From assembly GCA_964017155.1 (NCBI GenBank), contig OZ024856.1, positions 808,501-872,500 of the forward strand: a stretch of DNA of 64,000 bases, written 5' to 3'. The notes under the pieces were generated by a model. It made no database searches and was not told the DNA's origin. It saw nothing but the letters and a program-made list of their open reading frames with translations. Shown piece after piece: positions 1 to 25,106 of the stretch (within the stretch, counting starts at the first letter, position 1; every line of letters begins with the position of its first letter). The stretch comes from Oasisia sp. SBJ-2009. Its lineage: Eukaryota > Annelida > Polychaeta > Sabellida > Siboglinidae. Made by a program: the position numbers and the translations under genes.

Positions 1-580
1 ATAGTCGGAAAAACTGAGAAAAACGACAAAGTCCCATCCGTCTACGGGGGATCAGTTGGGGAAGCGTAAATGTCTGTCTACATTCTTTTCAACAGAATTC
101 CGTACCGACCGGCGGGTAAACGGCGGGAGTAATAAGGAACCACTAACTAGATGAGGTGACGAGGCATTTGGCGACCTTAACAGGGTGATAGTTGGAGAAA
201 TCGAGGAAAACGACGACAAAGTCCGATCCGTCTACGGGGGATCAGTTGGGGAAACGAGAATTTCTGTTTAAACCTGTTTCAACAAAGTTCCGTGCCGTGC
301 CGTGCCGACCGGTGGGTAAACGGCGGGAGTAATAAGGTACCACTAATATAAAATCATTAGACGCCGAGCGAGGCATTTGGCGACCTTAACAGGGTGATAG
401 TCGGAAAAACTGAGAAAAACGACATAGTCCGATCCGTCTACGGGGGATCAGTTGGGCAAGCGTAAATGTCTGTCTACATTCTTTTCAACAGAATTCCGTG
501 CCGACAGGTGGGAAAACGGCGGGAGTAATAAGGAACCACTAGCTAGATGAGGTGACGAGGCATTTGGCGACCTTAGCAGG
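1..580 (+). repeat. Short-unit tract: partial A', B, A'
   Basis: A 184-bp A' unit lacks only its first three bases. It is followed by a 209-bp B unit (185-393) with three GTGCC-type pentamers and by an A' unit (394-580). The B unit has ACGCCGAGCG where most copies have ACGACGAGCG. Confidence 0.9.
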
Positions 581-1329
581 GTGATAGTGGGAGAAATTGA
601 GTAAAACGACGACAAACTCCGATCCGTCTACGGGGGATCAGTTGAGCAAGCGGCGTACCGAAACCTGGCCCGGTCGTGTGCGCCGAAGCCTGGTCGCGTT
701 CCGAAGCCCGGCCGCCGGTCGCATGCAGAAGCCCGGCCCGGTCGTGTGCGCCGAAGCCTTGCCGCCGGTCGCGTTCCCAAGCCAGGCCGGACGCCGGTAA
801 CTGCCCGGCGCGGCCCGGCCCCGCGGCCAAGCTGGGCCCGGCCCGGACCAGCGGAGGGAGAGAGACGGGAAAGACGGACTCGACGACGGTAGAGATCACT
901 TGTGCATGTAGACGAATGACCAACCGAGCGCGTCGTTTTGCCAACTTTTGGAAACAAATCGAGAAAAACGACTAAGTCCTATAAGTCTACGGGGGATCAG
1001 TTCTGCGAATCGAGAAAAACGGCAAAGTTCGACCCGCCGGTCGGTCTTCTCGGGCGTGTGTCGCGCACGGGGAGTAACTACGACTCTCTCGAGGAAGCCC
1101 AATGGCCGTGCGCGTCATTTTGCCAACTTTCGGAAAATCGAGGAAAACGACAAAGTCCGATCCGTCTACGGGGGATCAGTTGGGGAAACGAGAATTTCTG
1201 TTTAAACCTGTTTCAACAAAGTTCCGTGTGCCGTGCCGTGCCGACCGGTGGGTAAACGGCGGGAGTAATAAGGTACCACTAATATAAAATCATTAGACGA
1301 CGAGCGAGGCATTTGGCGACCTTAACAGG
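581..1329 (+). repeat. Long module L1: long C, one D, B
   Basis: The opening is atypical (GTGATAGTGGGAGAAATTGA). The C segment is the long form with an internal repeat of the CGGTCGTGTGCGCCGAAGCC block, ending in a CCCCGCGGCC-type region instead of a CGGCC run. One D and a B tail follow; the B tail has an extra GTG in its GTGCC run. It is nearly identical to 5133-5879. Confidence 0.88.
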
Positions 1330-1706
1330 GTGATAGTCGGAAAAACTGAGAAAAACGACAAAGTCCCATCCGTCTACGGGGGATCAGTTGGGGAAGCGTA
1401 AATGTCTGTCTACATTCTTTACAACAGAATTCCGTACCGACCGGCGGGTAAACGGCGGGAGTAATAAGGAACCACTAACTAGATGAGGTGACGAGGCATT
1501 TGGCGACCTTAACAGGGTGATAGTTGGAGAAATCGAGGAAAACGACTACAAAGTCCGATCCGTCTACGGGGGATCAGTTGGGGAAGCGTAAATGTATGTC
1601 TTCATTCTTTTCGACAGAATTCCGTGCCGACCGGTGGGTAAACGGCGGGAGTAATAAGGAACCACTAGCTAGATGAGGTGACGAGGCATTTGGCGACCTT
1701 AACAGG
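1330..1706 (+). repeat. Short-unit tract: A', A
   Basis: Units of 187 and 190 bp. The second has GACTACAAAG for the usual GACGACAAAG and TGTATGTCTTC in the tail. Both variants are also found at 5880-6256, marking shared descent. Confidence 0.9.
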
Positions 1707-1749
1707 GTGATAGTTGGAGAAATCGAGGAAAACGACGACAAAGTCCGAT

Positions 1750-1769
1750 CCGTCTACGGGGGATCAGTT
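1750..1769 (+). repeat. Core box M, representative copy
   Basis: CCGTCTACGGGGGATCAGTT. This 20-mer is the most conserved piece of the array. It is present once in each short unit and two to four times in each long module, and sequence diverges into tail A, B, C or D directly after it. Common variants are CCGTCTAAGGGGG in many A units of the HOR zone and CCGTTTACGG before the B tail of 687-bp long modules. Its position at every tail switch suggests an exchange point or a protein-binding box; neither is shown by sequence alone. Confidence 0.9.
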
Positions 1770-2137
1770 GGGGAAGCGGCGTGCCGAAACCAGGCCCGGT
1801 CGTGTGCGCCGAAGCCTGGTCGCGTTCCGAAGCGGCCCGGCCCGGCCCGGCCGCACGGCGAGGTGCGGTCCGGTCCGGCCGGGTCCCAGCGCGGCCAGGC
1901 CGGGCCCGGCCCGGGCCGGCGGAGGGAGAGAGACGGGAAAGACGGACTCGACAACGATAGAGATCACATGTGTATGTAGACGAATGACCGACCGGGCGCG
2001 TCGTTTTGCCAACTTTTGGAAACAAATCGAGCAAAACGACTAAGTCCTATCCGTCTACGGGGGATCAGTTCTGCGAATCGAGAAAAACGACAAAGTTCGA
2101 CGCGCCGGTCGGTCTTCTCGGGCGTGTGTCGCGCACG

Positions 2138-2167
2138 GGGAGTAACTACGACTCTCTCGAGGAAGCC
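2138..2167 (+). repeat. Direct 28S R2-site-like block in D tail, representative
   Basis: The block reads GGGAGTAACTACGACTCTCT then CGAGGAAGCC; the remembered 28S is GGGAGTAACTATGACTCTCT then TAAGGTAGCC. I count 26 of 30 identical positions. The central TTAA of the target has become TCGA, giving a CTCGAG hexamer in most D tails (ATCGAG in some second D tails). CCAATGGCC and GCGTCAT follow, echoing 28S CAAATGCC and CGTCAT. This is the uninverted orientation. Confidence 0.72.
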
Positions 2168-2393
2168 CAATGGTCGTGCGCGTCATTTGGCCAACTTTTG
2201 AAAACAAATCGGGAAAAACGACTAAGTCCGATCCGTTTACGGGGGATCAGTAGGGGAAACGAGAATTTCTGTTTAAACCTGTTTCAACAAAGTTCCGTGC
2301 CGTGCCGACCGGTGGGTAAAGGGCGGGAGTAATAAGGAACCACTAATATAAAATCATTAGACGACGAGCGAGGCATTTGGCGACCTTAACAGG

Positions 2394-2580
2394 GTGATAG
2401 GTCGGAAAAACTGAGAAAAACGACAAAGTCCCATCCGTCTACGGGGGATCAGTTGGGGAAGCGTAAATGTCTGTCTACATTCTTTTCAACCGAATTCCGT
2501 GCCGACCGGTGGGTAAACGGCGGGAGTAATAAGGAACCACTAGCTAGATGAGGTGACGAGGCATTTGGGACCTTAACAGG
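2394..2580 (+). repeat. Single A' short unit
   Basis: A 187-bp unit with an extra G in its opening (GATAGGTCGG), a CAACCGAATTCC tail variant and GGCATTTGGGACC at its end. The last two variants also mark the single A' units before the expanded modules at 31825, 32807, 33929 and 40354. Confidence 0.9.
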
Positions 2581-3506
2581 GTGATAGTTGGAGAAATCGA
2601 GGAAAACGACGACAAAGTCCGATCCGTCTACGGGGGATCAGTTGAGCAGGCGGCGTGCCGAAACCTGGTCCGGTCGTGTGCGTCGAAGCCTGGTCGCGTT
2701 CCGAAGCCCGGACGCCGGTCGCATGCCGAAGCCCGGCCCGGTCGTGTGCGCCGAAGCCTTGCCGCCGGTCGCGTTCCGAAGCCCGGCCGGGCGCCGGTAA
2801 CTGCCCGGCGCGGCCCGGCCCGGCCCGGCCCGGCCCGGCCCGGCCCGGCCCGGCCCGGCCCGGCCCGGCCCGGCCCGGCCCGGCCCGGCCCGGCCCGGCC
2901 CGGCCCGGCCCGGCCCGGCCCGGCCCGGCCCGGCCCGGCCCGGCCCGGCCCGGCCCGGCCCGGCCCGCGCGGCGACGTGCGGTCCGGTCCGGCCGGGCCC
3001 AGCGCGGCCAGGCCGGGCCCGGCCCGGGCCGGCGGAGGGAGAGAGACGGGAAAGACGGACTCGACGACCGTAGAGAACACTTGTGCATGTAGACGAATGA
3101 CCGACCGGGCGCGTCGTTTTGCCAACTTTTGGAAACAAATGGAGAAAAACGACTAAGTCCTATCCGTCTACGGGGGATCAGTTCTGCGAATCGAGAAAAA
3201 CGGCAAAGTTCGACGCGCCGGTCGGTCTTCTCGGGCGTGTGTCGCGCACGGGGAGTAACTACGACTCTCTCGAGGAAGCCCAATGGTCGTGCGCGTCATT
3301 TGGCCAACTTTTGAAAACAAATCGGGAAAAACGACTAAGTCCGATCCGTTTACGGGGGATCAGTAGGGGAAACGAGAATTTATGTTTAAACCTGTTTCAA
3401 CAAAGTTCCGTGCCGTGCCGACCGGTGGGTAAACGGCGGGAGTAAAAAGGAACCACTAATATAAAATCATTAGACGACGAGCGAGGCATTTGGCTACCTT
3501 AACAGG
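2581..3506 (+). repeat. Long module L3 with large CGGCC expansion
   Basis: Long-form C followed by about 31 CGGCC pentamers, then a purine-rich stretch, D, the TTTTGAAAACAAATCGGG bridge and a B tail. At 926 bp it is one of the longest modules with a single D. Without most of its pentamers it would match the modules at 31825 and 33929. Long open frames of Gly-Pro-Gly-Arg-Ala or Gly-Pro-Ala-Arg-Pro repeats cross it in several frames and are an effect of the pentamer. Confidence 0.9.
2811..2965. repeat. (CGGCC)n microsatellite, about 31 copies
   Basis: An uninterrupted pentamer run of 155 bases. The minus strand reads (GGCCG)n, giving regular GGG tracts separated by CC, which fits the G3N2G3N2 pattern of potential G-quadruplexes. 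It is 100% G+C, rich in CpG, and likely to vary in length. Confidence 0.95.
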
Positions 3507-3693
3507 GTGATAGTCGGAAAAACTGAGAAAAACGACAAAGTCCCATCCGTCTACGGGGGATCAGTTGCGGAATCGTAAATGTCTGTCTACATTCTTTTCA
3601 ACATAATTCCGTGCCGACCGGTGGGTAAACGGCGGGAGTAATAAGGAACTACTAGCTAGATGAGGTGACGAGGCATTTGGCGACCTTAACAGG
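3507..3693 (+). repeat. Single A' short unit
   Basis: A 187-bp unit with TTGCGGAATCG in place of TTGGGGAAGCG and a GGAACTACTAG end. The same GCGGAATCG change is seen near 34815 and 36285. Confidence 0.9.
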
Positions 3694-4372
3694 GTGATAT
3701 TTGGAGAAATCGAGGAAAACGACGACAAAGTCCGATCCGTCTACGGGGGATCAGTTGGGGAAGCGGCGTGCCGAAACCAGGCCCGGTCGTGTGCGCCGAA
3801 GCCTGGTCGCGTACCGAAGCGGCCCGGCCCGGCCCGGCCGCACGGCGAGGTGCGGTCCGGTCCGGCCGGGTCCCAGCGCGGCCAGGCCGGGCCCGGCCCG
3901 GGCCGGCGGAGGGAGAGAGACGGGAAAGACGGACTCGACAACGATAGAGATCACATGTGTATGTAGACGAATGACCGACCGGGCGCGTCGTTTTGCCAAC
4001 TTTTGGAAACAAATCGAGCAAAACGACTAAGTCCTATCCGTCTACGGGGGATCAGTTCTGCGAATCGAGAAAAACGGCAAAGTTCGACGCGCCGGTCGGT
4101 CTTCTCGGGCGTGTGTCGCGCAAGGGGAGTAACTACGACTCTCTCGAGGAAGCCCAATGGCCGTGCGCGTAATTTTACCAACTTTCGGAAAATCGAGGAA
4201 AATCGAGGAAAACGACAAAGTCCCATCCGTCTACGGGGGATCAGTTGGGGAATCGTAAATGTCTGTCTACATTCTTTTCAACATAATTCCGTGCCGACCG
4301 GTGTTAAACGGCGGGAGTAATAAGGAACCACTAGCTAGATGAGGTGACGAGGCATTTGGCGAACTTAACAGG
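3694..4372 (+). repeat. Long module L4: short C, D fused to an A-type tail
   Basis: Opens GTGATATTTGG. After D, the bridge carries a doubled GGAAAATCGA, and box M (in its CCCATCC context, normally typical of A') is followed by tail A rather than B. The end of the D-B part and the start of A' seem to have been lost in one event. Confidence 0.82.
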
Positions 4373-4752
4373 GTGACAGTTGGAGAAATCGAGGAAAACG
4401 ACGACAAAGTCCGATCCGTCTACGGGGGATCAGTTGGGGAAGCGTAAATGTCTGTCTACATTCTTTTCAACATAATTCCGTGCCGAACGGTGGGTAAACG
4501 GCGGGAGTATTAAGGAGCCACTAGCTAGATAAGGTGACGAGGCATTTGGCGACCTTAACAGGGTGATAGTTGGAGAAATCGAGGAAAACGACGACAAAGT
4601 CCGATCCGTCTACGGGGGATCAGTTGGGGAAGCCTAAATGTCTGTCTACATTCTTTTCAACAGAATTCCGTGCCGACCGGTGGGTAAACGGCGGGAGTAT
4701 TAAGGAGCCACTAGCTAGATGAGGTGACGAGGCATTTGGCGACCTTAACAGG

Positions 4753-4942
4753 GTGATAGTTGGAGAAATCGAGGAAAACGACGACAAAGTCCGATCCGTC
4801 TAAGGGGGATCAGTTGGGGAAGCGTAAATGTCTGTCTACATTCTTTTCAACATAATTCCGTGCCGACCGGTGGGTAAACGGCGGGAGTAATAAGAAACCA
4901 CTAGCTAGATGAGGTGACGAGGCATTTGGCGACCTTAACAGG
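4753..4942 (+). repeat. Representative short unit A (190 bp)
   Basis: The unit opens GTGATAGTTGGAGAAATCGA, then box M (here with CTAAGGGGG), then tail A (AAGCGTAAATGTCTGTCTAC). Next come a direct 28S-like 19-mer and an inverted 28S-like block, and the following unit starts exactly 190 bp on. Four such units stand head to tail from 4373 to 5132 with starts at 4373, 4563, 4753 and 4943. Confidence 0.93.
4872..4890 (+). repeat. Direct 28S-like 19-mer in A tail, representative
   Basis: GGGTAAACGGCGGGAGTAA. As I recall the conserved eukaryotic 28S/26S rRNA, this equals the stretch just upstream of the R2/I-PpoI target. Some copies extend the match with an upstream GC (GCGGGTAAACGG, for example at 5994-6014). 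It occurs in nearly all A and B tails, occasionally with AAAGGGCGG or TATACGG changes. It is a gene fragment, not a working rRNA. Confidence 0.75.
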
Positions 4943-4950
4943 GTGATAGT
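4901..4950 (-). repeat. Inverted 28S R2-site-like block in A tail, representative
   Basis: Read on the minus strand, this block runs ACTATCACCCTGTTAAGG, then TCGCCAAATGCCTCGTCA, then CCTCATCTAGCTAG. The recalled 28S order is ACTATGACTCTCTTAAGG, TAGCCAAATGCCTCGTCA, TCTAATTAG. The central TTAAGGTxGCCAAATGCCTC differs by one base (C for A). The piece lies in opposite orientation to the 28S-like 19-mer about 10 bp upstream, as if the segment had been inverted in place. It recurs in nearly every A unit. Confidence 0.75.
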
Positions 4951-5132
4951 TGGAGAAATCGAGGAAAACGACGACAAAGTCCGATCCGTCTAAGGGGGAT
5001 CAGTTGGGGAAGCGTAAATGTCTGTCTACATTCTTTTCAACATAATTCCGTGCCGACCGGTGGGTAAACGGCGGGAGTAATAAGAAACCACTAGCTAGAT
5101 GAGGTGACGAGGCATTTGGCGACCTTAACAGG

Positions 5133-5879
5133 GTGATAGTTGGAGAAATCGAGGAAAACGACGACAAAGTCCGATCCGTCTACGGGGGATCAGTTGAGCA
5201 AGCGGCGTACCGAAACCTGGCCCGGTCGTGTGTGCCGAAGCCTGGTCGCGTTCCGAAGCCCGGCCGCCGGTCGCATGCAGAAGCCCGGCCCGGTCGTGTG
5301 CGCCGAAGCCTTGCCGCCGGTCGCGTTCCCAAGCCAGGCCGGACGCCGGTAACTGCCCGGCGCGGCCCGGCCCCGCGGCCAAGCTGGGCCCGGCCCGGAC
5401 CAGCGGAGGGAGAGAGACGGGAAAGACGGACTCGACGACGGTAGAGATCACTTGTGCATGTAGACGAATGACCAACCGAGCGCGTCGTTTTGCCAACTTT
5501 TGGAAACAAATCGAGAAAAACGACTAAGTCCTATAAGTCTACGGGGGATCAGTTCTGCGAATCGAGAAAAACGGCAAAGTTCGACCCGCCGGTCGGTCTT
5601 CTCGGGCGTGTGTCGCGCACGGGGAGTAACTACGACTCTCTCGAGGAAGCCCAATGGCCGTGCGCGTCATTTTGCCAACTTTCGGAAAATCGAGGAAAAC
5701 GACAAAGTCCGATCCGTCTACGGGGGATCAGTTGGGGAAACGAGAATTTCTGTTTAAACCTGTTTCAACAAAGTTCCGTGCCGTGCCGTGCCGACCGGTG
5801 GGTAAACGGCGGGAGTAATAAGGTACCACTAATATAAAATCATTAGACGACGAGCGAGGCATTTGGCGACCTTAACAGG
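5133..5879 (+). repeat. Long module L5: long C, one D, B (copy of L1)
   Basis: Differs from 581-1329 by a canonical opening, a GTGTGTGCCG change early in C and a two-base shorter GTGCC region. The match continues into the next two short units, so about 1.1 kb is duplicated about 4.55 kb apart. Confidence 0.9.
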
Positions 5880-6256
5880 GTGATAGTCGGAAAAACTGAG
5901 AAAAACGACAAAGTCCCATCCGTCTACGGGGGATCAGTTGGGGAAGCGTAAATGTCTGTCTACATTCTTTACAACAGAATTCCGTACCGACCGGCGGGTA
6001 AACGGCGGGAGTAATAAGGAACCACTAACTAGATGAGGTGACGAGGCATTTGGCGACCTTAACAGGGTGATAGTTGGAGAAATCGAGGAAAACGACTACA
6101 AAGTCCGATCCGTCTACGGGGGATCAGTTGGGGAAGCGTAAATGTATGTCTTCATTCTTTTCGACAGAATTCCGTGCCGACCGGTGGGTAAACGGCGGGA
6201 GTAATAAGGAACCACTAGCTAGATGAGGTGACGAGGCATTTGGCGACCTTAACAGG
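5880..6256 (+). repeat. Short-unit tract: A', A (copy of 1330-1706)
   Basis: Repeats the private variants GACTACAAAG and TGTATGTCTTC of the earlier tract, extending the duplication that includes the preceding long module. Confidence 0.9.
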
Positions 6257-6447
6257 GTGATAGTTGGAGAAATCGAGGAAAACGACGACAAAGTCCGATC
6301 CGTCTACGGGGGATCAGTTGAGCAAGCGGCGTGCCGTGCCGTGCCGTGCCGTGCCGTGCCGACCGGTGGGTATACGGCGGGAGTAATAAGGAACCACTAA
6401 TATAAAATCATTAGACGACGAGCGAGGCATTTGGCGACCTTAACAGG
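6257..6447 (+). repeat. Hybrid unit: start of C joined to end of B
   Basis: After box M the sequence begins tail C (TTGAGCAAGCGGCGTGCCG). It then passes through six GTGCC pentamers (6331-6360) straight into the B-tail end (GACCGGTGGGTATACGG). All the GC-rich body, the D segment and the B start are missing. The GTGCC motif common to both tails is the likely crossover site. Confidence 0.82.
6331..6360 (+). repeat. (GTGCC)6 microsatellite
   Basis: Six exact pentamers. B tails elsewhere have about two to five, some with a GCGCC or CATGCC variant, as expected for slippage. Confidence 0.92.
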
Positions 6448-6848
6448 GTGATAGTCGGAAAAACTGAGAAAAACGACAAACTCCCATCAGTCTACGGGGG
6501 ATCATTTCTGCGAATCGAGAAAAACGGCAAAGTTCGACGCGCCGGTCGGTCTTCTCGGGCGTGTGTCGCGCACGGGGAGTAACTAAGACTCTCTCGAGGA
6601 AGCCCAATGGCCGTGCGCGTCATTTTGCCAACTTTCGGAAAATCGAGGAAAACGACAAAATCCGAACCGTCTACGGGGGGATCAGTTGGGGAAACGAGAA
6701 TTTATGTTTAAACCTGTTTCAACAAAGTTCCGTGCCGTGCCATGCCGTGCCGTGCCGTGCCGACCGGTGGGTAAAGGGCGGGAGTAATAAGGAACCACTA
6801 ATATAAAATCATTAGACGACGAGCGAGGCATTTGGCGACCTTAACAGG
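6448..6848 (+). repeat. D-only long module
   Basis: An A'-type opening and box M (GGGATCATTT variant) lead directly into D, then into a B tail with an expanded GTGCC run including one CATGCC. No C segment is present. At 401 bp it is about 290 bp shorter than a 687-bp module. Confidence 0.85.
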
Positions 6849-7784
6849 GTGATAGTCGGAAAAACTGAGAAAAACGACAAAGTCCCATCCGTCTACGGGG
6901 GATCAGTTGGGGAAGCGTAAATGTCTGTCTACGTTCTTTTTAACAGAATTCCGTACCGACCGGCGGGTAAACGGCGGAAGTAATAAGGATCCACTAACTA
7001 GATGAGGTGACGAGGCATTTGGCGACCTTAACAGGGTGATAGTTGCAGAAATCGAGGAAAACGACGACAAAGTCCGATCCGTCTAAGGGGGATCAGTTGG
7101 GGAAGCGTAAATGTCTGTCTACATTCTTTTCAACATAATTCCGTGCCGACCGGTGGGTAAACGGCGGGAGTAATAAGAAACCGCTAGCTAGATGAGGTGA
7201 CGAGGCATTTGGCGACCTTAACAGGAGAAATCGAGGAAAACGACGACAAAGTCCGATCCGTCTAAGGGGGATCAGTTGGGGAAGCGTAAATGTCTGTCTA
7301 CATTCTTTTCAACATAATTCCGTGCCGACCGGTGGGTAAACGGCGGGAGTAATAAGAAACCACTAGCTAGATGAGGTGACGAGGCATTTGGCGACCTTAA
7401 CAGGGTGATAGTTGGAGAAATCGAGGAAAACGACGACAAAGTCCGATCCGTCTAAGGGGGATCAGTTGGGGAAGCGTAAATGTCTGTCTACATTCTTTTC
7501 AACATAATTCCGTGCCGACCGGTGGGTAAACGGCGGGAGTAATAAGAAACCACTAGCTAGATGAGGTGACGAGGCATTTGGCGACCTTAACAGGGTGATA
7601 GTTGGAGAAATCGAGGAAAACGACGACAAAGTCCGATCCGTCTAAGGGGGATCAGTTGGGGAAGCGTAAATGTCTGTCTACATTCTTTTCAACATAATTC
7701 CGTGCCGACCGGTGGGTAAACGGCGGGAGTAATAAGAAACCACTAGCTAGATGAGGTGACGAGGCATTTGGCGACCTTAACAGG

Positions 7785-7993
7785 GTGATAGTTGGAGAAA
7801 TCGAGGAAAACGACGACAAAGTCCGATCCGTCTACGGGGGATCAGTTGGGGAAACGAGAATTTCTGTTTAAACCTGTTTCAACAAAGTGCCGTGCCGCGC
7901 CGTGCCGACCGGTGGGTAAACGGCGGGAGCAAAAAGGAACCACTAATATAAAATCATTAGACGACGAGCGAGGCATTTGGCTACCTTAACAGG
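7785..7993 (+). repeat. Representative short unit B (209 bp)
   Basis: It shares the opening and box M with unit A, then carries AAACGAGAATTTCTGTTTAA, a short run of GTGCC-type pentamers, the direct 28S-like 19-mer, and an AT-rich CACTAATATAAAATCATTAG piece inside the inverted 28S-like block. It is always followed by an A'-type opening (GTGATAGTCGGAAAAACTGA). The same unit recurs at 13544, 16920 and 22679. Confidence 0.9.
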
Positions 7994-8001
7994 GTGATAG
8001 T
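7941..8001 (-). repeat. Inverted 28S R2-site-like block in B tail, representative
   Basis: On the minus strand, positions 7989 down to 7970 read TTAAGGTAGCCAAATGCCTC, a perfect 20-base match to the remembered 28S R2 target. The next bases give CTCGTCGTCTAAT, then an insert of about nine AT-rich bases, then TTAGTGG; 28S has CTCGTCATCTAATTAGTG. The TCTAAT and TTAGTG halves are retained around the insert. B tails ending GGCTACCTT keep the perfect core, whereas those ending GGCGACCTT carry the one-base change seen in A units. Confidence 0.75.
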
Positions 8002-9525
8002 CGGAAAAACTGAGAAAAACGACAAAGTCCCATCCGTCTACGGGGGATCAGTTGGGGAATCGTAAATGTCTGTCTACATTCTTTTCAACATAATTCCGTG
8101 TCGACCGGTGGTAAACGGCGGGAGTAATAAGGAACCACTAGCTATATGAGGTGACGAGGCATTTGGCGAACTTAACAGGGTGATAGTTGGAGAAATCGAG
8201 GAAAACGACGACAAAGTCCGATCCGTCTACGGGGGATCAGTTGGGGAAGCGTAAATGTCTGTCTACATTCTTTTCAACAGAATTCCGTGCCGAACGGTGG
8301 GTAAACGGCGGGAGTATTAAGGAGCCACTAGCTAGATGAGGTGACGAGGCATTTGGCGACCTTAACAGGGTGATAGTTGGAGAAATCGAGGAAAACGACG
8401 ACAAAGTCCGATCCGTCTACGGGGGATCAGTTGGGGAAGCCTAAATGTCTGTCTACATTCTTTTCAACATAATTCCGTGCCGACCGGTGGGTAAACGGCG
8501 GGAGTAATAAGAAACCACTAGCTAGATGAGGTGACGAGGCATTTGGCGACCTTAACATGGTGATAGTTGGAGAAATCGAGGAAAACGACGACAAAGTCCG
8601 ATCCGTCTACGGGGGATCAGTTGGGGAAACGAGAATTTCTGTTTAAACCTGTTTCAACAAAGTGCCGTGCCGCGCCGTGCCGACCGGTGGGTAAACGGCG
8701 GGAGTAAAAAGGAACCACTAATATAAAATCATTAGACGACGAGCGAGGCATTTGGCTACCTTAACAGGGTGATAGTCGGAAAAACTGAGAAAAACGACAA
8801 AGTCCCATCCGTCTACGGGGGATCAGTTGGGGAAGCGTAAATGTCTGTCTACATTCTTTTCAACATAATTCCGTGCCGAACGGTGGGTAAACGGCGGGAG
8901 TATTAAGGAGCCACTAGCTAGATAAGGTGACGAGGCATTTGGCGACCTTAACAGGGTGATAGTTGGAGAAATCGAGGAAAACGACGACAAAGTCCGATCC
9001 GTCTACGGGGGATCAGTTGGGGAAGCCTAAATGTCTGTCTACATTCTTTTCAACATAATTCCGTGCCGACCGGTGGGTAAACGGCGGGAGTAATAATGAA
9101 CCACTAGCTAGATGAGGTGACGAGGCATTTGGCGACCTTAACAGGGTGATAGTTGGAGAAATCGAGGAAAACGACGACAAAGTCCGATCCGTCTACGGGG
9201 GATCAGTTGGGGAAGCCTAAATGTCTGTCTACATTCTTTTCAACACAATTCCGTGCCGACCGGCGGGTAAACGGCGGGAGTATTAAGGAGCCACTAGCTA
9301 GATGAGGTGACGAGGCATTTGGCGACCTTAACAGGGTGATAGTTGGAGAAATCGGGGAAAACGACGACAAAGTCCGATCCGTCTACGGGGGATCAGTTGG
9401 GGAAGCGTAAATGTCTGTCTACATTCTTTTCAACACAATTCCGTGCCGACCGGTGGGTAAACGGCGGGAGTAATAAGGAACCACTAGCTAGATGAGGTGA
9501 CGAGGCATTTGGCGACCTTAACAGG

Positions 9526-10212
9526 GTGATATTTGGAGAAATCGAGGAAAACGACGACAAAGTCCGATCCGTCTACGGGGGATCAGTTGGGGAAGCGGCG
9601 TGCCGAAACCAGGCCCGGTCGTGTGCGCCGAAGCCTGGTCGCGTTCCGAAGCGGCCCGGCCCGGCCCGGCCGCACGGCGAGGTGCGGTCCGGTCCGGCCG
9701 CGTCCCAGCGCGGCCAGGCCGGGCCCGGCCCGGGCCGGCGGAGGGAGAGAGACGGGAAAGACGGACTCGACAACGATAGAGATCACATGTGTATGTAGAC
9801 GAATGACCGACCGGGCGCGTCGTTTTGCCAACTTTTGGAAACAAATCGAGCAAAACGACTAAGTCCTATCCGTCTACGGGGGATCAGTTCTGCGAATCGA
9901 GAAAAACGGCAAAGTTCGACGCGCCGGTCGGTCTTCTCGGGCGTGTGTCGCGCACGGGGAGTAATTACGACTCTCTCGAGGAAGCCCAATGGTCGTGCGC
10001 GTCATTTGGCCAACTTTTGAAAACAAATCGGGAAAAACGACTAAGTCCGATCCGTTTACGGGGGATCAGTAGGGGAAACGAGAATTTCTGTTTAAACCTG
10101 TTTCAACAAAGTTCCGTGCCGTGCCGACCGGTGGGTAAAGGGCGGGAGTAATAAGGAACCACTAATATAAAATCATTAGACGACGAGCGAGGCATTTGGC
10201 GACCTTAACAGG
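9526..10212 (+). repeat. Long module, 687-bp type, variant X
   Basis: Opens GTGATATTTGG. It differs from the 1707 module by GGCCGCGTCCC in C and GTAATTACG in the 28S-like part of D. These two markers are shared by the seven modules from here to 26815. Confidence 0.92.
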
Positions 10213-11920
10213 GTGATAGGTCGGAAAAACTGAGAAAAACGACAAAGTCCCATCCGTCTACGGGGGATCAGTTGGGGAAGCGTAAATGTCTGTCTACATT
10301 CTTTTCAACATAATTCCGTGCCGACCGGTGGGTAAACGGCGGGAGTATTAAGGAGCCACTAGCTAGATGAGGTGACGAGGCATTTGGCGACCTTAACAGG
10401 GTGATAGTTGGAGAAATCGGGGAAAACGACGACAAAGTCCGATCCGTCTACGGGGGATCAGTTGGGGAAGCGTAAATGTCTGTCTACATTCTTTTCAACA
10501 TAATTCCGTGCCGACCGGTGGGTAAACGGCGGGAGTAATAAGGAACTACTAGCTAGATGAGGTGACGAGGCATTTGGCGAACTTAACAGGGTGACAGTTG
10601 GAGAAATCGAGGAAAACGACGACAAAGTCCGATCCGTCTACGGGGGATCAGTTGGGGAAGCGTAAATGTCTGTCTACATTCTTTTCAACATAATTCCGTG
10701 CGGAACGGTGGGTAAACGGCGGGAGTATTAAGGAGCCACTAGCTAGATAAGGTGACGAGGCATTTGGCGACCTTAACAGGGTGATAGTTGGAGAAATCGA
10801 GGAAAACGACGACAAAGTCCGATCCGTCTACGGGGGATCAGTTGGGGAAGCCTAAATGTCTGTCCACATTCTTTTCAACATAATTCCGTGCCGACCGGTG
10901 GGTAAACGGCGGGAGTAATAATGAACCACTAGCTAGATGAGGTGACGAGGCATTTGGCGACCTTAACAGGGTGATAGTTGCAGAAATCGAGGAAAACGAC
11001 GACAAAGTCCGATCCGTCTACGGGGGATCAGTTGGGGAAGCGTAAATGTCTGTCTACATTCTTTTCAACAGAATTCCGTGCCGACCGGTGGGTAAACGGC
11101 GGGAGTATTAAGGAGCCACTAGCTAGATGAGGTGACGAGGCATTTGGCGACCTTAACAGGGTGATAGTTGGAGAAATCGAGGAAAACGACGACAAAGTCC
11201 GATCCGTCTAAGGGGGATCAGTTGGGGAAGCGTAAATGTCTGTCTACATTCTTTTCAACATAATTCCGTGCCGACCGGTGGGTAAACGGCGGGAGTAATA
11301 AGAAACCACTAGCTAGATGAGGTGACGAGGCATTTGGCGACCTTAACAGGGTGATAGTTGGAGAAATCGAGGAAAACGACGACAAAGTCCGATCCGTCTA
11401 AGGGGGATCAGTTGGGGAAGCGTAAATGTCTGTCTACATTCTTTTCAACATAATTCCGTGCCGACCGGTGGGTAAACGGCGGGAGTAATAAGAAACCACT
11501 AGCTAGATGAGGTGACGAGGCATTTGGCGACCTTAACAGGGTGATAGTTGGAGAAATCGAGGAAAACGACGACAAAGTCCGATCCGTCTAAGGGGTATCA
11601 GTTGGGGAAGCGTAAATGTCTGTCTACATTCTTTTCAACATAATTCCGTGCCGACCGGTGGGTAAACGGCGGGAGTAATAAGAAACCACTAGCTAGATGA
11701 GGTGACGAGGCATTTGGCGACCTTAACAGGGTGATAGTTGGAGAAATCGAGGAAAACGACGACAAAGTCCGATCCGTCTAAGGGGGATCAGTTGGGGAAG
11801 CGTAAATGTCTGTCTACATTCTTTTCAACACAATTCCGTGCCGACCGGTGGGTAAACGGCGGGAGTAATAAGGAACCACTAGCTAGATGAGGTGACGAGG
11901 CATTTGGCGACCTTAACAGG
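10213..11920 (+). repeat. Short-unit tract of nine units (1708 bp)
   Basis: One A'-type unit of 188 bp (GATAGGTCGG opening) and eight 190-bp A units, with no B unit. Recurs at 19348 and 25107, and forms the start of the tract at 27502. Distinctive variants in order: GTGACAGTTGG, GTGCGGAACGG, TGTCCACATTC and AGGGGTATCAG. Confidence 0.92.
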
Positions 11921-12607
11921 GTGATATTTGGAGAAATCGAGGAAAACGACGACAAAGTCCGATCCGTCTACGGGGGATCAGTTGGGGAAGCGGCGTGCCG
12001 AAACCAGGCCCGGTCGTGTGCGCCGAAGCCTGGTCGCGTTCCGAAGCGGCCCGGCCCGGCCCGGCCGCACGGCGAGGTGCGGTCCGGTCCGGCCGCGTCC
12101 CAGCGCGGCCAGGCAGGGCCCGGCCCGGGCCGGCGGAGGGAGAGAGACGGGAAAGACGGACTCGACAACGATAGAGATCACATGTGTATGTAGACGAATG
12201 ACCGACCGGGCGCGTCGTTTTGCCAACTTTTGGAAACAAATCGAGCAAAACGACTAAGTCCTATCCGTCTACGGGGGATCAGTTCTGCGAATCGAGAAAA
12301 ACGGCAAAGTTCGACGCGCCGGTCGGTCTTCTCGGGCGTGTGTCGCGCACGGGGAGTAATTACGACTCTCTCGAGGAAGCCCAATGGTCGTGCGCGTCAT
12401 TTGGCCAACTTTTGAAAACAAATCGGGAAAAACGACTAAGTCCGATCCGTTTACGGGGGATCAGTAGGGGAAACGAGAATTTCTGTTTAAACCTGTTTCA
12501 ACAAAGTTCCGTGCCGTGCCGACCGGTGGGTAAAGGGCGGGAGTAATAAGGAACCACTAATATAAAATCATTAGACGACGAGCGAGGCATTTGGCGACCT
12601 TAACAGG
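11921..12607 (+). repeat. Long module, 687-bp type, variant Y
   Basis: Like variant X but with CCAGGCAGGGCCC in C instead of CCAGGCCGGGCCC. Variant Y recurs at 21056 and 26815, always after a nine-unit tract. Confidence 0.92.
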
Positions 12608-15284
12608 GTGATAGTCGGAAAAACTGAGAAAAACGACAAAGTCCCATCCGTCTACGGGGGATCAGTTGGGGAAGCGTAAATGTCTGTCTACGTTCTTTTT
12701 AACAGAATTCCGTACCGACCGGCGGGTAAACGGCGGAAGTAATAAGGATCCACTAACTAGATGAGGTGACGAGGCATTTGGCGACCTTAACAGGGTGATA
12801 GTTGCAGAAATCGAGGAAAACGACGACAAAGTCCGATCCGTCTAAGGGGGATCAGTTGGGGAAGCGTAAATGTCTGTCTACATTCTTTTCAACATAATTC
12901 CGTGCCGACCGGTGGGTAAACGGCGGGAGTAATAAGAAACCACTAGCTAGATGAGGTGACGAGGCATTTGGCGACCTTAACAGGAGAAATCGAGGAAAAC
13001 GACGACAAAGTCCGATCCGTCTAAGGGGGATCAGTTGGGGAAGCGTAAATGTCTGTCTACATTCTTTTCAACATAATTCCGTGCCGACCGGTGGGTAAAC
13101 GGCGGGAGTAATAAGAAACCACTAGCTAGATGAGGTGACGAGGCATTTGGCGACCTTAACAGGGTGATAGTTGGAGAAATCGAGGAAAACGACGACAAAG
13201 TCCGATCCGTCTAAGGGGGATCAGTTGGGGAAGCGTAAATGTCTGTCTACATTCTTTTCAACATAATTCCGTGCCGACCGGTGGGTAAACGGCGGGAGTA
13301 ATAAGAAACCACTAGCTAGATGAGGTGACGAGGCATTTGGCGACCTTAACAGGGTGATAGTTGGAGAAATCGAGGAAAACGACGACAAAGTCCGATCCGT
13401 CTAAGGGGGATCAGTTGGGGAAGCGTAAATGTCTGTCTACATTCTTTTCAACATAATTCCGTGCCGACCGGTGGGTAAACGGCGGGAGTAATAAGAAACC
13501 ACTAGCTAGATGAGGTGACGAGGCATTTGGCGACCTTAACAGGGTGATAGTTGGAGAAATCGAGGAAAACGACGACAAAGTCCGATCCGTCTACGGGGGA
13601 TCAGTTGGGGAAACGAGAATTTCTGTTTAAACCTGTTTCAACAAAGTGCCGTGCCGCGCCGTGCCGACCGGTGGGTAAACGGCGGGAGCAAAAAGGAACC
13701 ACTAATATAAAATCATTAGACGACGAGCGAGGCATTTGGCTACCTTAACAGGGTGATAGTCGGAAAAACTGAGAAAAACGACAAAGTCCCATCCGTCTAC
13801 GGGGGATCAGTTGGGGAATCGTAAATGTCTGTCTACATTCTTTTCAACATAATTCCGTGTCGACCGGTGGTAAACGGCGGGAGTAATAAGGAACCACTAG
13901 CTAGATGAGGTGACGAGGCATTTGGCGAACTTAACAGGGTGATAGTTGGAGAAATCGAGGAAAACGACGACAAAGTCCGATCCGTCTACGGGGGATCAGT
14001 TGGGGAAGCGTAAATGTCTGTCTACATTCTTTTCAACAGAATTCCGTGCCGAACGGTGGGTAAACGGCGGGAGTATTAAGGAGCCACTAGCTAGATGAGG
14101 TGACGAGGCATTTGGCGACCTTAACAGGGTGATAGTTGGAGAAATCGAGGAAAACGACGACAAAGTCCGATCCGTCTACGGGGGATCAGTTGGGGAAGCC
14201 TAAATGTCTGTCTACATTCTTTTCAACATAATTCCGTGCCGACCGGTGGGTAAACGGCGGGAGTAATAAGAAACCACTAGCTAGATGAGGTGACGAGGCA
14301 TTTGGCGACCTTAACATGGTGATAGTTGGAGAAATCGAGGAAAACGACGACAAAGTCCGATCCGTCTACGGGGGATCAGTTGGGGAAACGAGAATTTCTG
14401 TTTAAACCTGTTTCAACAAAGTGCCGTGCCGCGCCGTGCCGACCGGTGGGTAAACGGCGGGAGTAAAAAGGAACCACTAATATAAAATCATTAGACGACG
14501 AGCGAGGCATTTGGCTACCTTAACAGGGTGATAGTCGGAAAAACTGAGAAAAACGACAAAGTCCCATCCGTCTACGGGGGATCAGTTGGGGAAGCGTAAA
14601 TGTCTGTCTACATTCTTTTCAACATAATTCCGTGCCGAACGGTGGGTAAACGGCGGGAGTATTAAGGAGCCACTAGCTAGATAAGGTGACGAGGCATTTG
14701 GCGACCTTAACAGGGTGATAGTTGGAGAAATCGAGGAAAACGACGACAAAGTCCGATCCGTCTACGGGGGATCAGTTGGGGAAGCCTAAATGTCTGTCTA
14801 CATTCTTTTCAACATAATTCCGTGCCGACCGGTGGGTAAACGGCGGGAGTAATAATGAACCACTAGCTAGATGAGGTGACGAGGCATTTGGCGACCTTAA
14901 CAGGGTGATAGTTGGAGAAATCGAGGAAAACGACGACAAAGTCCGATCCGTCTACGGGGGATCAGTTGGGGAAGCCTAAATGTCTGTCTACATTCTTTTC
15001 AACACAATTCCGTGCCGACCGGCGGGTAAACGGCGGGAGTATTAAGGAGCCACTAGCTAGATGAGGTGACGAGGCATTTGGCGACCTTAACAGGGTGATA
15101 GTTGGAGAAATCGGGGAAAACGACGACAAAGTCCGATCCGTCTACGGGGGATCAGTTGGGGAAGCGTAAATGTCTGTCTACATTCTTTTCAACACAATTC
15201 CGTGCCGACCGGTGGGTAAACGGCGGGAGTAATAAGGAACCACTAGCTAGATGAGGTGACGAGGCATTTGGCGACCTTAACAGG
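12608..15284 (+). repeat. Short-unit tract of 14 units (2677 bp), second copy
   Basis: Matches 6849-9525 unit by unit, including TACGTTCTTTTT in the first unit and the 12-bp loss in the third. It has CTAGATGAGG near 13903 where the first copy has CTATATGAGG. Confidence 0.92.
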
Positions 15285-15971
15285 GTGATATTTGGAGAAA
15301 TCGAGGAAAACGACGACAAAGTCCGATCCGTCTACGGGGGATCAGTTGGGGAAGCGGCGTGCCGAAACCAGGCCCGGTCGTGTGCGCCGAAGCCTGGTCG
15401 CGTTCCGAAGCGGCCCGGCCCGGCCCGGCCGCACGGCGAGGTGCGGTCCGGTCCGGCCGCGTCCCAGCGCGGCCAGGCCGGGCCCGGCCCGGGCCGGCGG
15501 AGGGAGAGAGACGGGAAAGACGGACTCGACAACGATAGAGATCACATGTGTATGTAGACGAATGACCGACCGGGCGCGTCGTTTTGCCAACTTTTGGAAA
15601 CAAATCGAGCAAAACGACTAAGTCCTATCCGTCTACGGGGGATCAGTTCTGCGAATCGAGAAAAACGGCAAAGTTCGACGCGCCGGTCGGTCTTCTCGGG
15701 CGTGTGTCGCGCACGGGGAGTAATTACGACTCTCTCGAGGAAGCCCAATGGTCGTGCGCGTCATTTGGCCAACTTTTGAAAACAAATCGGGAAAAACGAC
15801 TAAGTCCGATCCGTTTACGGGGGATCAGTAGGGGAAACGAGAATTTCTGTTTAAACCTGTTTCAACAAAGTTCCGTGCCGTGCCGACCGGTGGGTAAAGG
15901 GCGGGAGTAATAAGGAACCACTAATATAAAATCATTAGACGACGAGCGAGGCATTTGGCGACCTTAACAGG
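15285..15971 (+). repeat. Long module, 687-bp type, variant X
   Basis: Starts exactly 5759 bp after the X module at 9526, which sets the HOR period (687 + 1708 + 687 + 2677). I saw no difference from that copy. Confidence 0.92.
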
Positions 15972-18660
15972 GTGATAGGTCGGAAAAACTGAGAAAAACG
16001 ACAAAGTCCCATCCGTCTACGGGGGATCAGTTGGGGAAGCGTAAATGTCTGTCTACATTCTTTTCAACATAATTCCGTGCCGACCGGTGGGTAAACGGCG
16101 GGAGTATTAAGGAGCCACTAGCTAGATGAGGTGACGAGGCATTTGGCGACCTTAACAGGGTGATAGTTGGAGAAATCGGGGAAAACGACGACAAAGTCCG
16201 ATCCGTCTACGGGGGATCAGTTGGGGAAGCGTAAATGTCTGTCTACATTCTTTTCAACATAATTCCGTGCCGACCGGTGGGTAAACGGCGGGAGTAATAA
16301 GGAACTACTAGCTAGATGAGGTGACGAGGCATTTGGCGAACTTAACAGGGTGACAGTTGGAGAAATCGAGGAAAACGACGACAAAGTCCGATCCGTCTAC
16401 GGGGGATCAGTTGGGGAAGCGTAAATGTCTGTCTACATTCTTTTCAACATAATTCCGTGCGGAACGGTGGGTAAACGGCGGGAGTATTAAGGAGCCACTA
16501 GCTAGATAAGGTGACGAGGCATTTGGCGACCTTAACAGGGTGATAGTTGGAGAAATCGAGGAAAACGACGACAAAGTCCGATCCGTCTACGGGGGATCAG
16601 TTGGGGAAGCGTAAATGTCTGTCTACATTCTTTTCAACATAATTCCGTGCCGACCGGTGGGTAAACGGCGGGAGTAATAAGAAACCACTAGCTAGATGAG
16701 GTGACGAGGCATTTGGCGACCTTAACAGGGTGATAGTTGGAGAAATCGAGGAAAACGACGACAAAGTCCGATCCGTCTAAGGGGGATCAGTTGGGGAAGC
16801 GTAAATGTCTGTCTACATTCTTTTCAACATAATTCCGTGCCGACCGGTGGGTAAACGGCGGGAGTAATAAGAAACCACTAGCTAGATGAGGTGACGAGGC
16901 ATTTGGCGACCTTAACAGGGTGATAGTTGGAGAAATCGAGGAAAACGACGACAAAGTCCGATCCGTCTACGGGGGATCAGTTGGGGAAACGAGAATTTCT
17001 GTTTAAACCTGTTTCAACAAAGTGCCGTGCCGCGCCGTGCCGACCGGTGGGTAAACGGCGGGAGCAAAAAGGAACCACTAATATAAAATCATTAGACGAC
17101 GAGCGAGGCATTTGGCTACCTTAACAGGGTGATAGTCGGAAAAACTGAGAAAAACGACAAAGTCCCATCCGTCTACGGGGGATCAGTTGGGGAATCGTAA
17201 ATGTCTGTCTACATTCTTTTCAACATAATTCCGTGTCGACCGGTGGTAAACGGCGGGAGTAATAAGGAACCACTAGCTATATGAGGTGACGAGGCATTTG
17301 GCGAACTTAACAGGGTGATAGTTGGAGAAATCGAGGAAAACGACGACAAAGTCCGATCCGTCTACGGGGGATCAGTTGGGGAAGCGTAAATGTCTGTCTA
17401 CATTCTTTTCAACAGAATTCCGTGCCGAACGGTGGGTAAACGGCGGGAGTATTAAGGAGCCACTAGCTAGATGAGGTGACGAGGCATTTGGCGACCTTAA
17501 CAGGGTGATAGTTGGAGAAATCGAGGAAAACGACGACAAAGTCCGATCCGTCTACGGGGGATCAGTTGGGGAAGCCTAAATGTCTGTCTACATTCTTTTC
17601 AACATAATTCCGTGCCGACCGGTGGGTAAACGGCGGGAGTAATAAGAAACCACTAGCTAGATGAGGTGACGAGGCATTTGGCGACCTTAACATGGTGATA
17701 GTTGGAGAAATCGAGGAAAACGACGACAAAGTCCGATCCGTCTACGGGGGATCAGTTGGGGAAACGAGAATTTCTGTTTAAACCTGTTTCAACAAAGTGC
17801 CGTGCCGCGCCGTGCCGACCGGTGGGTAAACGGCGGGAGTAAAAAGGAACCACTAATATAAAATCATTAGACGACGAGCGAGGCATTTGGCTACCTTAAC
17901 AGGGTGATAGTCGGAAAAACTGAGAAAAACGACAAAGTCCCATCCGTCTACGGGGGATCAGTTGGGGAAGCGTAAATGTCTGTCTACATTCTTTTCAACA
18001 TAATTCCGTGCCGAACGGTGGGTAAACGGCGGGAGTATTAAGGAGCCACTAGCTAGATAAGGTGACGAGGCATTTGGCGACCTTAACAGGGTGATAGTTG
18101 GAGAAATCGAGGAAAACGACGACAAAGTCCGATCCGTCTACGGGGGATCAGTTGGGGAAGCCTAAATGTCTGTCTACATTCTTTTCAACATAATTCCGTG
18201 CCGACCGGTGGGTAAACGGCGGGAGTAATAATGAACCACTAGCTAGATGAGGTGACGAGGCATTTGGCGACCTTAACAGGGTGATAGTTGGAGAAATCGA
18301 GGAAAACGACGACAAAGTCCGATCCGTCTACGGGGGATCAGTTGGGGAAGCCTAAATGTCTGTCTACATTCTTTTCAACACAATTCCGTGCCGACCGGCG
18401 GGTAAACGGCGGGAGTATTAAGGAGCCACTAGCTAGATGAGGTGACGAGGCATTTGGCGACCTTAACAGGGTGATAGTTGGAGAAATCGGGGAAAACGAC
18501 GACAAAGTCCGATCCGTCTACGGGGGATCAGTTGGGGAAGCGTAAATGTCTGTCTACATTCTTTTCAACACAATTCCGTGCCGACCGGTGGGTAAACGGC
18601 GGGAGTAATAAGGAACCACTAGCTAGATGAGGTGACGAGGCATTTGGCGACCTTAACAGG
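15972..18660 (+). repeat. Chimeric short-unit tract of 14 units (2689 bp)
   Basis: The first five units (15972-16919) follow the nine-unit tract (188-bp opening unit, GTGACAG, GTGCGGAACGG). From the B unit at 16920 it follows the 14-unit tract. The 12-bp loss in unit three is absent, explaining 2689 rather than 2677 bp. CTATATGAGG near 17277 matches 8142. Confidence 0.9.
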
Positions 18661-19347
18661 GTGATATTTGGAGAAATCGAGGAAAACGACGACAAAGTCC
18701 GATCCGTCTACGGGGGATCAGTTGGGGAAGCGGCGTGCCGAAACCAGGCCCGGTCGTGTGCGCCGAAGCCTGGTCGCGTTCCGAAGCGGCCCGGCCCGGC
18801 CCGGCCGCACGGCGAGGTGCGGTCCGGTCCGGCCGCGTCCCAGCGCGGCCAGGCCGGGCCCGGCCCGGGCCGGCGGAGGGAGAGAGACGGGAAAGACGGA
18901 CTCGACAACGATAGAGATCACATGTGTATGTAGACGAATGACCGACCGGGCGCGTCGTTTTGCCAACTTTTGGAAACAAATCGAGCAAAACGACTAAGTC
19001 CTATCCGTCTACGGGGGATCAGTTCTGCGAATCGAGAAAAACGGCAAAGTTCGACGCGCCGGTCGGTCTTCTCGGGCGTGTGTCGCGCACGGGGAGTAAT
19101 TACGACTCTCTCGAGGAAGCCCAATGGTCGTGCGCGTCATTTGGCCAACTTTTGAAAACAAATCGGGAAAAACGACTAAGTCCGATCCGTTTACGGGGGA
19201 TCAGTAGGGGAAACGAGAATTTCTGTTTAAACCTGTTTCAACAAAGTTCCGTGCCGTGCCGACCGGTGGGTAAAGGGCGGGAGTAATAAGGAACCACTAA
19301 TATAAAATCATTAGACGACGAGCGAGGCATTTGGCGACCTTAACAGG
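18661..19347 (+). repeat. Long module, 687-bp type, variant X
   Basis: Lies 9135 bp after the module at 9526 and appears identical to it. It follows another X module, breaking the X-Y alternation at the chimeric tract. Confidence 0.92.
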
Positions 19348-21055: not shown

Positions 21056-21742
21056 GTGATATTTGGAGAAATCGAGGAAAACGACGACAAAGTCCGATCC
21101 GTCTACGGGGGATCAGTTGGGGAAGCGGCGTGCCGAAACCAGGCCCGGTCGTGTGCGCCGAAGCCTGGTCGCGTTCCGAAGCGGCCCGGCCCGGCCCGGC
21201 CGCACGGCGAGGTGCGGTCCGGTCCGGCCGCGTCCCAGCGCGGCCAGGCAGGGCCCGGCCCGGGCCGGCGGAGGGAGAGAGACGGGAAAGACGGACTCGA
21301 CAACGATAGAGATCACATGTGTATGTAGACGAATGACCGACCGGGCGCGTCGTTTTGCCAACTTTTGGAAACAAATCGAGCAAAACGACTAAGTCCTATC
21401 CGTCTACGGGGGATCAGTTCTGCGAATCGAGAAAAACGGCAAAGTTCGACGCGCCGGTCGGTCTTCTCGGGCGTGTGTCGCGCACGGGGAGTAATTACGA
21501 CTCTCTCGAGGAAGCCCAATGGTCGTGCGCGTCATTTGGCCAACTTTTGAAAACAAATCGGGAAAAACGACTAAGTCCGATCCGTTTACGGGGGATCAGT
21601 AGGGGAAACGAGAATTTCTGTTTAAACCTGTTTCAACAAAGTTCCGTGCCGTGCCGACCGGTGGGTAAAGGGCGGGAGTAATAAGGAACCACTAATATAA
21701 AATCATTAGACGACGAGCGAGGCATTTGGCGACCTTAACAGG
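21056..21742 (+). repeat. Long module, 687-bp type, variant Y
   Basis: Carries the Y marker GGCAGGGCCC and lies 9135 bp from 11921. Confidence 0.92.
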
Positions 21743-24419: not shown

Positions 24420-25106
24420 GTGATATTTGGAGAAATCGAGGAAAACGACGACAAAGTCCGATCCGTCTACGGGGGATCAGTTGGGGAAGCGGCGTGCCGA
24501 AACCAGGCCCGGTCGTGTGCGCCGAAGCCTGGTCGCGTTCCGAAGCGGCCCGGCCCGGCCCGGCCGCACGGCGAGGTGCGGTCCGGTCCGGCCGCGTCCC
24601 AGCGCGGCCAGGCCGGGCCCGGCCCGGGCCGGCGGAGGGAGAGAGACGGGAAAGACGGACTCGACAACGATAGAGATCACATGTGTATGTAGACGAATGA
24701 CCGACCGGGCGCGTCGTTTTGCCAACTTTTGGAAACAAATCGAGCAAAACGACTAAGTCCTATCCGTCTACGGGGGATCAGTTCTGCGAATCGAGAAAAA
24801 CGGCAAAGTTCGACGCGCCGGTCGGTCTTCTCGGGCGTGTGTCGCGCACGGGGAGTAATTACGACTCTCTCGAGGAAGCCCAATGGTCGTGCGCGTCATT
24901 TGGCCAACTTTTGAAAACAAATCGGGAAAAACGACTAAGTCCGATCCGTTTACGGGGGATCAGTAGGGGAAACGAGAATTTCTGTTTAAACCTGTTTCAA
25001 CAAAGTTCCGTGCCGTGCCGACCGGTGGGTAAAGGGCGGGAGTAATAAGGAACCACTAATATAAAATCATTAGACGACGAGCGAGGCATTTGGCGACCTT
25101 AACAGG
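24420..25106 (+). repeat. Long module, 687-bp type, variant X
   Basis: Lies 5759 bp after 18661 and 9135 bp after 15285, belonging to both repeat frameworks. Confidence 0.92.

What the first reader, a model, noticed from the sequence alone, without database searches (positions are those of the whole stretch)
7941..8001. Inverted, sometimes perfect, copy of the 28S R2/I-PpoI target core in almost every short unit
On the minus strand, B tails ending GGCTACCTT contain TTAAGGTAGCCAAATGCCTC, which I recall as the invariant 28S rRNA sequence where R2 retrotransposons insert; I-PpoI recognises an overlapping stretch. A units carry it with one change. About two hundred copies lie outside any rRNA gene. 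If the match holds, the array is a large decoy or secondary target for R2-like elements or homing nucleases, or a fossil of such an element's target.
Basis: partly seen in the sequence, partly recalled or inferred. Interest (0 to 1): 0.78.

Follow-up and report, generated by a model that had tools for sequence, protein, structure and literature searches.

The report
Satellite built on flipped 28S fragment
A very large family of short tandem repeats in an animal genome carries, in most of its units, a broken and partly flipped copy of the stretch of ribosomal RNA gene that R2 jumping genes attack; it looks like a relic of that target and not like a working one.

Summary
The window (C3:808501-872500 of a 764 Mb, 33-contig assembly) is satellite. 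It has 219 minus-strand copies (up to 3 mismatches) of TTAAGGTAGCCAAATGCCTC: 25 exact, 168 with one A-to-C change. The two pieces abut on the 28S map (-36 to -18 sense; -17 to about +27 antisense). A second module carries the site uninverted but mutated. Similarity to real LSU genes exceeds shuffles; the rest of the unit does not.

The target reading is not supported. R2Bm's two recognition words (RUM, RASIN) are both present but on opposite strands: 0 pairs at the 28S spacing in the window or, as exact pairs, in the assembly. No R2-sized insertion interrupts 210 kb with 752 core-bearing segments. R2 exists in this genome.

Best reading: a satellite seeded by an inverted or folded-back fragment of the 28S R2 target, amplified to 33,922 exact copies of its constant 20-mer. 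New variant of rDNA-derived satellites; the origin mechanism is inferred.

The parts
1..64000 (+). Satellite array, all in one orientation; part of an array with first Q module at C3:782315 that runs past C3:992384
   Evidence: Tandem repeat scan; module marker counts on both strands
7914..7929 (+). Sense 28S piece (-36 to -21) in the unit of the finding; contains the exact RUM 13-mer at 7916-7928
   Evidence: Sequence read; 224 such places in the window within 2 mismatches; RUM definition from PMC10499050
7956..8001 (-). Antisense 28S piece (about +27 to -17) of the same unit, with a 4-base insertion
   Evidence: Sequence read; B consensus alignment to 28S
7970..7989 (-). Exact core TTAAGGTAGCCAAATGCCTC of the finding
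   Evidence: 0 mismatches
7983..7989 (-). TTAAGGT, the RASIN word, intact but inverted relative to RUM
   Evidence: Sequence read (194 places in the window with TTAAGGT[AC]GCCAAATGCC on the minus strand)
8034..8053 (+). Constant 20-mer CCGTCTACGGGGGATCAGTT of module start Q
   Evidence: Sequence read; 33,922 exact copies in the assembly
114..132 (+). Exact sense 28S piece GGGTAAACGGCGGGAGTAA of the first A-type unit
161..180 (-). Antisense core of the same unit, one mismatch (TTAAGGTCGCC form)
1070..1089 (+). Sense 28S stretch GGGAGTAACTACGACTCTCT of a T module
   Evidence: exact; 49 such places in the window within 2 mismatches
52703..52881 (+). T module closest to 28S in sense (GGGAGTAACTATGACTCTCT, then a mutated cut site)
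2803..3033 (+). GCCCG pentamer run inside a GC-rich G module; no LSU similarity
   Evidence: G module against LSU

Best explanation
It is a major satellite DNA whose founding unit captured a fragment of the 28S rRNA gene around the R2 insertion site (about -36 to +27) in rearranged form. In the core-bearing modules the upstream part stayed in sense and the cut-site part is inverted next to it; in the sister T module the site is uninverted but mutated at the cut. The unit was then amplified by ordinary satellite processes (unequal exchange, gene conversion, perhaps circles) into arrays on at least two chromosomes. Shown: the 28S homology, its two orientations, the abutting boundaries, R2 in the same genome, no R2-sized insertion in 210 kb, no R2 site in working order. 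Inferred: that the rearrangement arose at a 28S copy broken at or near the R2 site, for instance by R2, and repaired by snap-back synthesis, which copies the flank of a break in inverted order. Fold-back duplication and simple inversion fit the core-bearing units about equally well. Today it behaves as passive satellite.
For: 28S homology above shuffles on both strands against real LSU genes, and confined to the R2 site (also 31). Sense and antisense pieces abut on the 28S map. T is homologous to the core-bearing unit over its length and carries the sense site through the cut. 752 of 1,028 segments in 210 kb have both pieces; sister array on C1; 33,922 exact copies of the constant 20-mer. R2 present: 7 of 7 places with the downstream 28S flank are interrupted just before it, and one open frame matches R2 proteins in the PDB. 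RUM and RASIN on opposite strands. Snap-back synthesis gives inverted-repeat templated insertions (PMC9962433, passages seen).
Against: No intermediate with a longer 28S stretch in array context was found. This species' rDNA unit was not obtained, so a spacer origin of the rest of the unit is untested (rRNA family searches unanswered). An antisense arm in T is weak: 3 of 1000 shuffles reach it in one T variant against the arm, 48 of 1000 in the other, 52 of 1000 against the longer 28S piece. The C1 unit prefers simple inversion (99.8 against 93.2), the A unit fold-back (99.2 against 93.6), B is equal. Nothing links R2 itself to the founding event.
Confidence: 0.72

Rival explanations
1. Spacer origin: the unit is a repeat of this species' rDNA intergenic spacer that already held a duplicated, partly inverted 28S piece, and later spread outside rDNA.
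For: Spacers are a known source of satellites (PMC12692304, passages seen). GC-rich G modules look spacer-like (my judgement).
Against: No rRNA gene in the window. Q, T outside the site and G show nothing beyond shuffles against L044 and L045, but L044 holds no spacer and L045 is a distant eukaryote, so this is weak evidence.
Confidence: 0.12
2. R2-derived relic: the unit descends from an R2 RNA, which can start up to 36 nt upstream in 28S, retrotransposed to a new place.
For: R2 RNAs are cut 9 to 36 nt upstream of the junction and earwig R2 carries downstream 28S sequence at its 5' end (PMC3774820, passages seen); the sense piece begins at -36. Some R2 families carry 28S-like sequence in the 3' UTR (PMC5035012, passages seen).
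Against: T runs through the insertion site unbroken. Modules match R2 copies only in the 28S stubs plus weak short matches: best E 0.55 in L029-L037 and 0.16 in L038 and L039. No ribozyme family in the window at E up to 1. The copies seen are 5'-truncated or not shown to be full length, so 5' UTRs are untested.
Confidence: 0.06
3. R2 sponge: the array does not get cut but binds R2 protein through its many intact RUM words and so protects 28S genes.
For: Exact RUM in 197 places in the window and 673 in the 244 kb stretch. R2 lineages are present.
Against: RUM is not consistently the best-kept part of the unit: its exact 13-mer ranks 14 of 178, 76 of 194, 95 of 184 and 61 of 167 windows in four subfamilies; T modules lack it. 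No binding data.
Confidence: 0.06
4. Working secondary target: R2 or a homing nuclease cuts or inserts into the array.
For: 25 exact and 168 one-change 20-mers in the window. RASIN tolerates changes at +2 in R2Bm (PMC10499050, passages seen), and a bird R2 made rare off-target insertions when overexpressed (PMC12222951, passages seen).
Against: No RUM upstream of the inverted RASIN; 0 pairs at 28S spacing; no R2-sized insertion among 1,028 segments; no I-PpoI site within 1 mismatch in the window.
Confidence: 0.04

Closest known systems
rDNA-derived satellite DNAs (from intergenic spacers or 5S rDNA; potato, Vicia, tomato, Hoplias, Physalaemus and others cited in review PMC12692304, passages seen)
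   Same: Tandem non-coding repeat outside rRNA genes with a piece of rDNA in each unit
   Different: The rDNA piece is 28S coding sequence, confined to the R2 site and present in two orientations; the rest of the unit has no known source
28S R2 target site (RUM plus RASIN of R2Bm, PMC10499050, passages seen)
   Same: Both recognition words are present
   Different: They lie on opposite strands, so no working arrangement exists
R2 elements carrying 28S-derived sequence (seven families with 28S-like sequence in the 3' UTR, PMC5035012; earwig R2, PMC3774820; passages seen)
   Same: 28S sequence next to the R2 site moved into repetitive DNA
   Different: No R2 sequence was found in the unit; this is a tandem satellite, not an element
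28S rDNA-like repeat cluster associated with CenH3 in Tribolium castaneum (PMC7598501, passages seen)
   Same: 28S-like repeats named among centromere-associated repeats
   Different: The passage gives no unit structure or R2-site link; no comparison was made here

Membership tests
rDNA-derived satellite DNA | Tandem head-to-tail units outside rRNA genes | tested here: met
rDNA-derived satellite DNA | Unit similar to rDNA beyond chance | tested here: met
rDNA-derived satellite DNA | Source is spacer or 5S rDNA, as in the described cases | tested here: inconclusive
   The recognisable piece is 28S coding; this species' spacer was not obtained
R2 insertion target | Intact RUM (-34 to -22) | tested here: met
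   197 exact places, all plus strand
R2 insertion target | Intact RASIN (-6 to +1) | tested here: met
   194 places, minus strand
R2 insertion target | RUM and RASIN on one strand at 28S spacing | tested here: not met
   0 in the window, 0 exact pairs in the assembly
R2 insertion target | R2 copies inserted in it | tested here: not met
   No segment over 549 bp among 1,028; raw reads not available
I-PpoI homing site | 15-mer CTCTCTTAAGGTAGC (recalled) | tested here: not met
   0 at up to 1 mismatch in the window; 2 at 1 mismatch in 244 kb
R2-derived nonautonomous element | R2 UTR or ORF sequence in the unit | tested here: inconclusive
   Only 28S stubs and weak short matches in the R2 copies at hand; full 5' UTRs not seen

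The most novel reading that the evidence does not exclude
R2 itself seeded a major satellite: a break at the R2 site in 28S was repaired by snap-back synthesis, giving an inverted copy of the target that was amplified to tens of thousands of units. Because core-bearing units keep R2's docking word but have its cutting word flipped, the array became an uncuttable mimic that binds and titrates R2 protein.
Probability: 0.08. Interest if true: 0.82.

Novelty: new variant of a known kind. Interest (0 to 1): 0.5.

Why it matters
The rDNA-derived satellites cited in the review seen come from spacers or 5S rDNA. One seeded by the very stretch that a site-specific retrotransposon cuts, in two orientations, would link transposon-made breaks to the birth of satellite DNA, and could be tested by sequencing relatives. 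It also warns that a perfect 20-bp match to the R2 site, repeated many times, need not be an R2 target.

Tried and rejected
Rejected: chance similarity; an Rfam-recognisable rRNA gene (no match); an intact I-PpoI site; an unusually stable RNA hairpin (four stretches, z-scores 1.47, -0.04, -0.41, 0.98); consistent selection on RUM. Extension of the 28S homology beyond the stated stretch: not significant for A upstream (743 of 1000 shuffles reach the score), Q against 28S sense (108), antisense (684) and antisense upstream part (242), the A mid piece (76) and the A tail (420); borderline for T upstream (21) and the T2 tail (32). Public collections: the constant 20-mer and an exact 52-base 28S stretch had no match in viral contigs; a 48-base 28S stretch gave two contigs with eukaryotic rDNA in genome contigs, used as LSU references. 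Paper searches for a satellite made from the 28S R2 site showed none among the titles listed; lists were cut at 15 or 20 where more papers matched, and only the passages cited were read.

Full report
What was checked. The window is C3:808501-872500 of a 764 Mb assembly in 33 contigs. The core at 7970-7989 is exact and on the minus strand. In the window 219 minus-strand copies lie within 3 mismatches, 25 exact and 168 with one A-to-C change; none lies on the plus strand within 4. 100 shuffles give zero.

The plus strand carries GGGTAAACGGCGGGAGTAA, the 28S sequence immediately upstream, in 224 places within 2 mismatches, 130 exact. Numbered from the R2 cut (TTAAGG|TAGCC) this is -36 to -18. The minus-strand stretch covers about +27 to -17. 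The two pieces therefore meet on the 28S map, but one is flipped. A second module, T, carries the site in sense through the cut, with a mutated cut site (49 places in the window within 2 mismatches; 35 bp at 85.7% identity to LSU).

Is it really 28S? It was repeated against two contigs found in the public genome collection by an exact 28S pattern and identified by Rfam as eukaryotic LSU, one partial and one complete. The core-bearing consensus A scored 46.8 and 44.0 bits in antisense and 29.7 in sense, T scored 38.3; the best of 200 shuffles scored 26.8 (A) and 28.3 (T). The G module's best match, 22.6 bits, is below its shuffles (29.7), and no part of A or T outside the site exceeded theirs. 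So the recognisable 28S part is confined to the R2 site.

Array anatomy. On C3 the first Q module is at 782,315, after a different repeat, and the array runs past 992,384; a 1.5 kb sample at C3:1,090,001 is outside. This 210 kb holds 1,029 copies of Q and thus 1,028 segments: 752 with both 28S pieces, 186 T (85 of them with a loose antisense match), 83 G, 2 with core and T, 1 with T and G, and 4 of 71 bp with no marker. C1 carries a sister array from about 530.0 kb on; in the seven C1 loci examined T and core-bearing modules mostly alternate. The 20-mer CCGTCTACGGGGGATCAGTT occurs 17,803 times forward and 16,119 times in reverse in the assembly; at about 190 bp a unit that is roughly 6 Mb (inference). 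The exact core 20-mer occurs 379 times in reverse and 4 times forward; the 4 were not located.

R2 in this genome. A search for the 28S sequence just downstream of the cut, up to 3 mismatches, found seven places, and in seven of seven the sequence directly upstream is not 28S, as expected for R2 3' junctions. Two of them (C9, C10) also have 28S on the upstream side. One open frame (C10) matches PDB entry 8gh6 at E 4e-64 (R2Bm by recall and the paper) and chains named R2 retrotransposon protein; Pfam gives only RVT_1. The rest were judged by their junctions, and C9 and L033 also by unsearched reading frames.

Can R2 use the array? In R2Bm, specificity comes from RUM, -34 to -22, and RASIN, -6 to +1 (motif TTNANNT). 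Their spacing must be as in 28S or one base longer, and mutating +6 to +37 kept activity (PMC10499050, passages seen). RUM is exact in 197 places in the window, all plus; RASIN with its 28S continuation is present in 194 places, minus. Pairs at the 28S spacing number 0 on either strand, also with 4 mismatches allowed in RUM; one exact RUM has a RASIN-like word one base too near. On the minus strand the -34 to -22 position holds unrelated sequence in A, B and C1 units. The assembly has no exact pair at 28S spacing (the tool warns that very common words may be skipped in DNA searches), and a search for the site across the cut found only two places, both with a mismatch at the cut, so an intact 28S copy of the site seems not to be assembled. 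No segment of the C3 stretch is longer than 549 bp, so no R2-sized insertion is there. By the rules of R2Bm the array is not a target; the host's R2 may differ.

Fold-back or inversion. Against a fold-back model the A, B, C1 and T2 consensus units score 99.2, 91.6, 93.2, 59.2; against a simple inversion 93.6, 91.6, 99.8, 33.4; against direct 28S 54.2, 46.4, 52.2, 53.2. The core-bearing units cannot tell the first two apart; T fits direct or fold-back. An antisense arm in T is weakly supported (3 of 1000 shuffles for T2 and 48 of 1000 for T against the arm, 52 of 1000 for T2 against the longer piece).

How it may have arisen. R2 cuts at this site, and snap-back synthesis by polymerase theta can yield inverted templated insertions (PMC9962433, passages seen). 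Repair of an R2-broken 28S copy could place both orientations side by side within tens of bases. This is inference; no intermediate was found. The sense piece starts at -36, the furthest upstream ribozyme cut reported for R2 RNA (PMC3774820, passages seen), but T runs through the cut site, which an R2 RNA would not; I treat this as an unexplained coincidence.

Function. In four subfamilies (435, 149, 45 and 48 units) the RUM 13-mer ranks 14 of 178, 76 of 194, 95 of 184 and 61 of 167 windows by the share of units exact over it; only in the largest does it stand out (93.6% of units exact, median window 77.7%), and there an antisense-core window ranks first. That is no consistent sign of selection. 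RNA folding is ordinary. The sponge reading is not excluded but has no positive evidence beyond the words being there.

Novelty. The review seen names spacers among sources of satellites and cites 5S-derived ones (PMC12692304, passages seen). Six paper searches listed no title on a satellite made from the 28S R2 site; they cover open-licence papers only and some lists were cut.

Noticed in passing
L012 positions 1-3800 (C3:778501-782300) and L028 start (C1:1-600): A different AT-rich repeat with inverted copies of itself flanks the array on the left and, judged by eye, is the same as the repeat at the very start of C1.
   Followed up: no
window 2803-3033 and 33029-33268: Runs of the pentamer GCCCG inside GC-rich G modules that recur at changing spacings (84 G markers in the 244 kb stretch).
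   Followed up: partly
window 9455-26744: Long units recur 2395, 3364, 3376, 2395, 3364 and 2395 bp apart, a higher-order repeat.
   Followed up: no
L030 positions 1493-1571 (C11:32209081-32209159): A lone fragment of 28S across the R2 site, with one change at the cut and other flanking DNA; no R2 inserted between its two halves.
   Followed up: partly
L031-L037: Seven R2-type 3' junctions with several different upstream ends, so probably several R2 lineages; L031 and L032 end in a T run, and in L033 and L037 the downstream 28S is joined to upstream 28S.
   Followed up: partly
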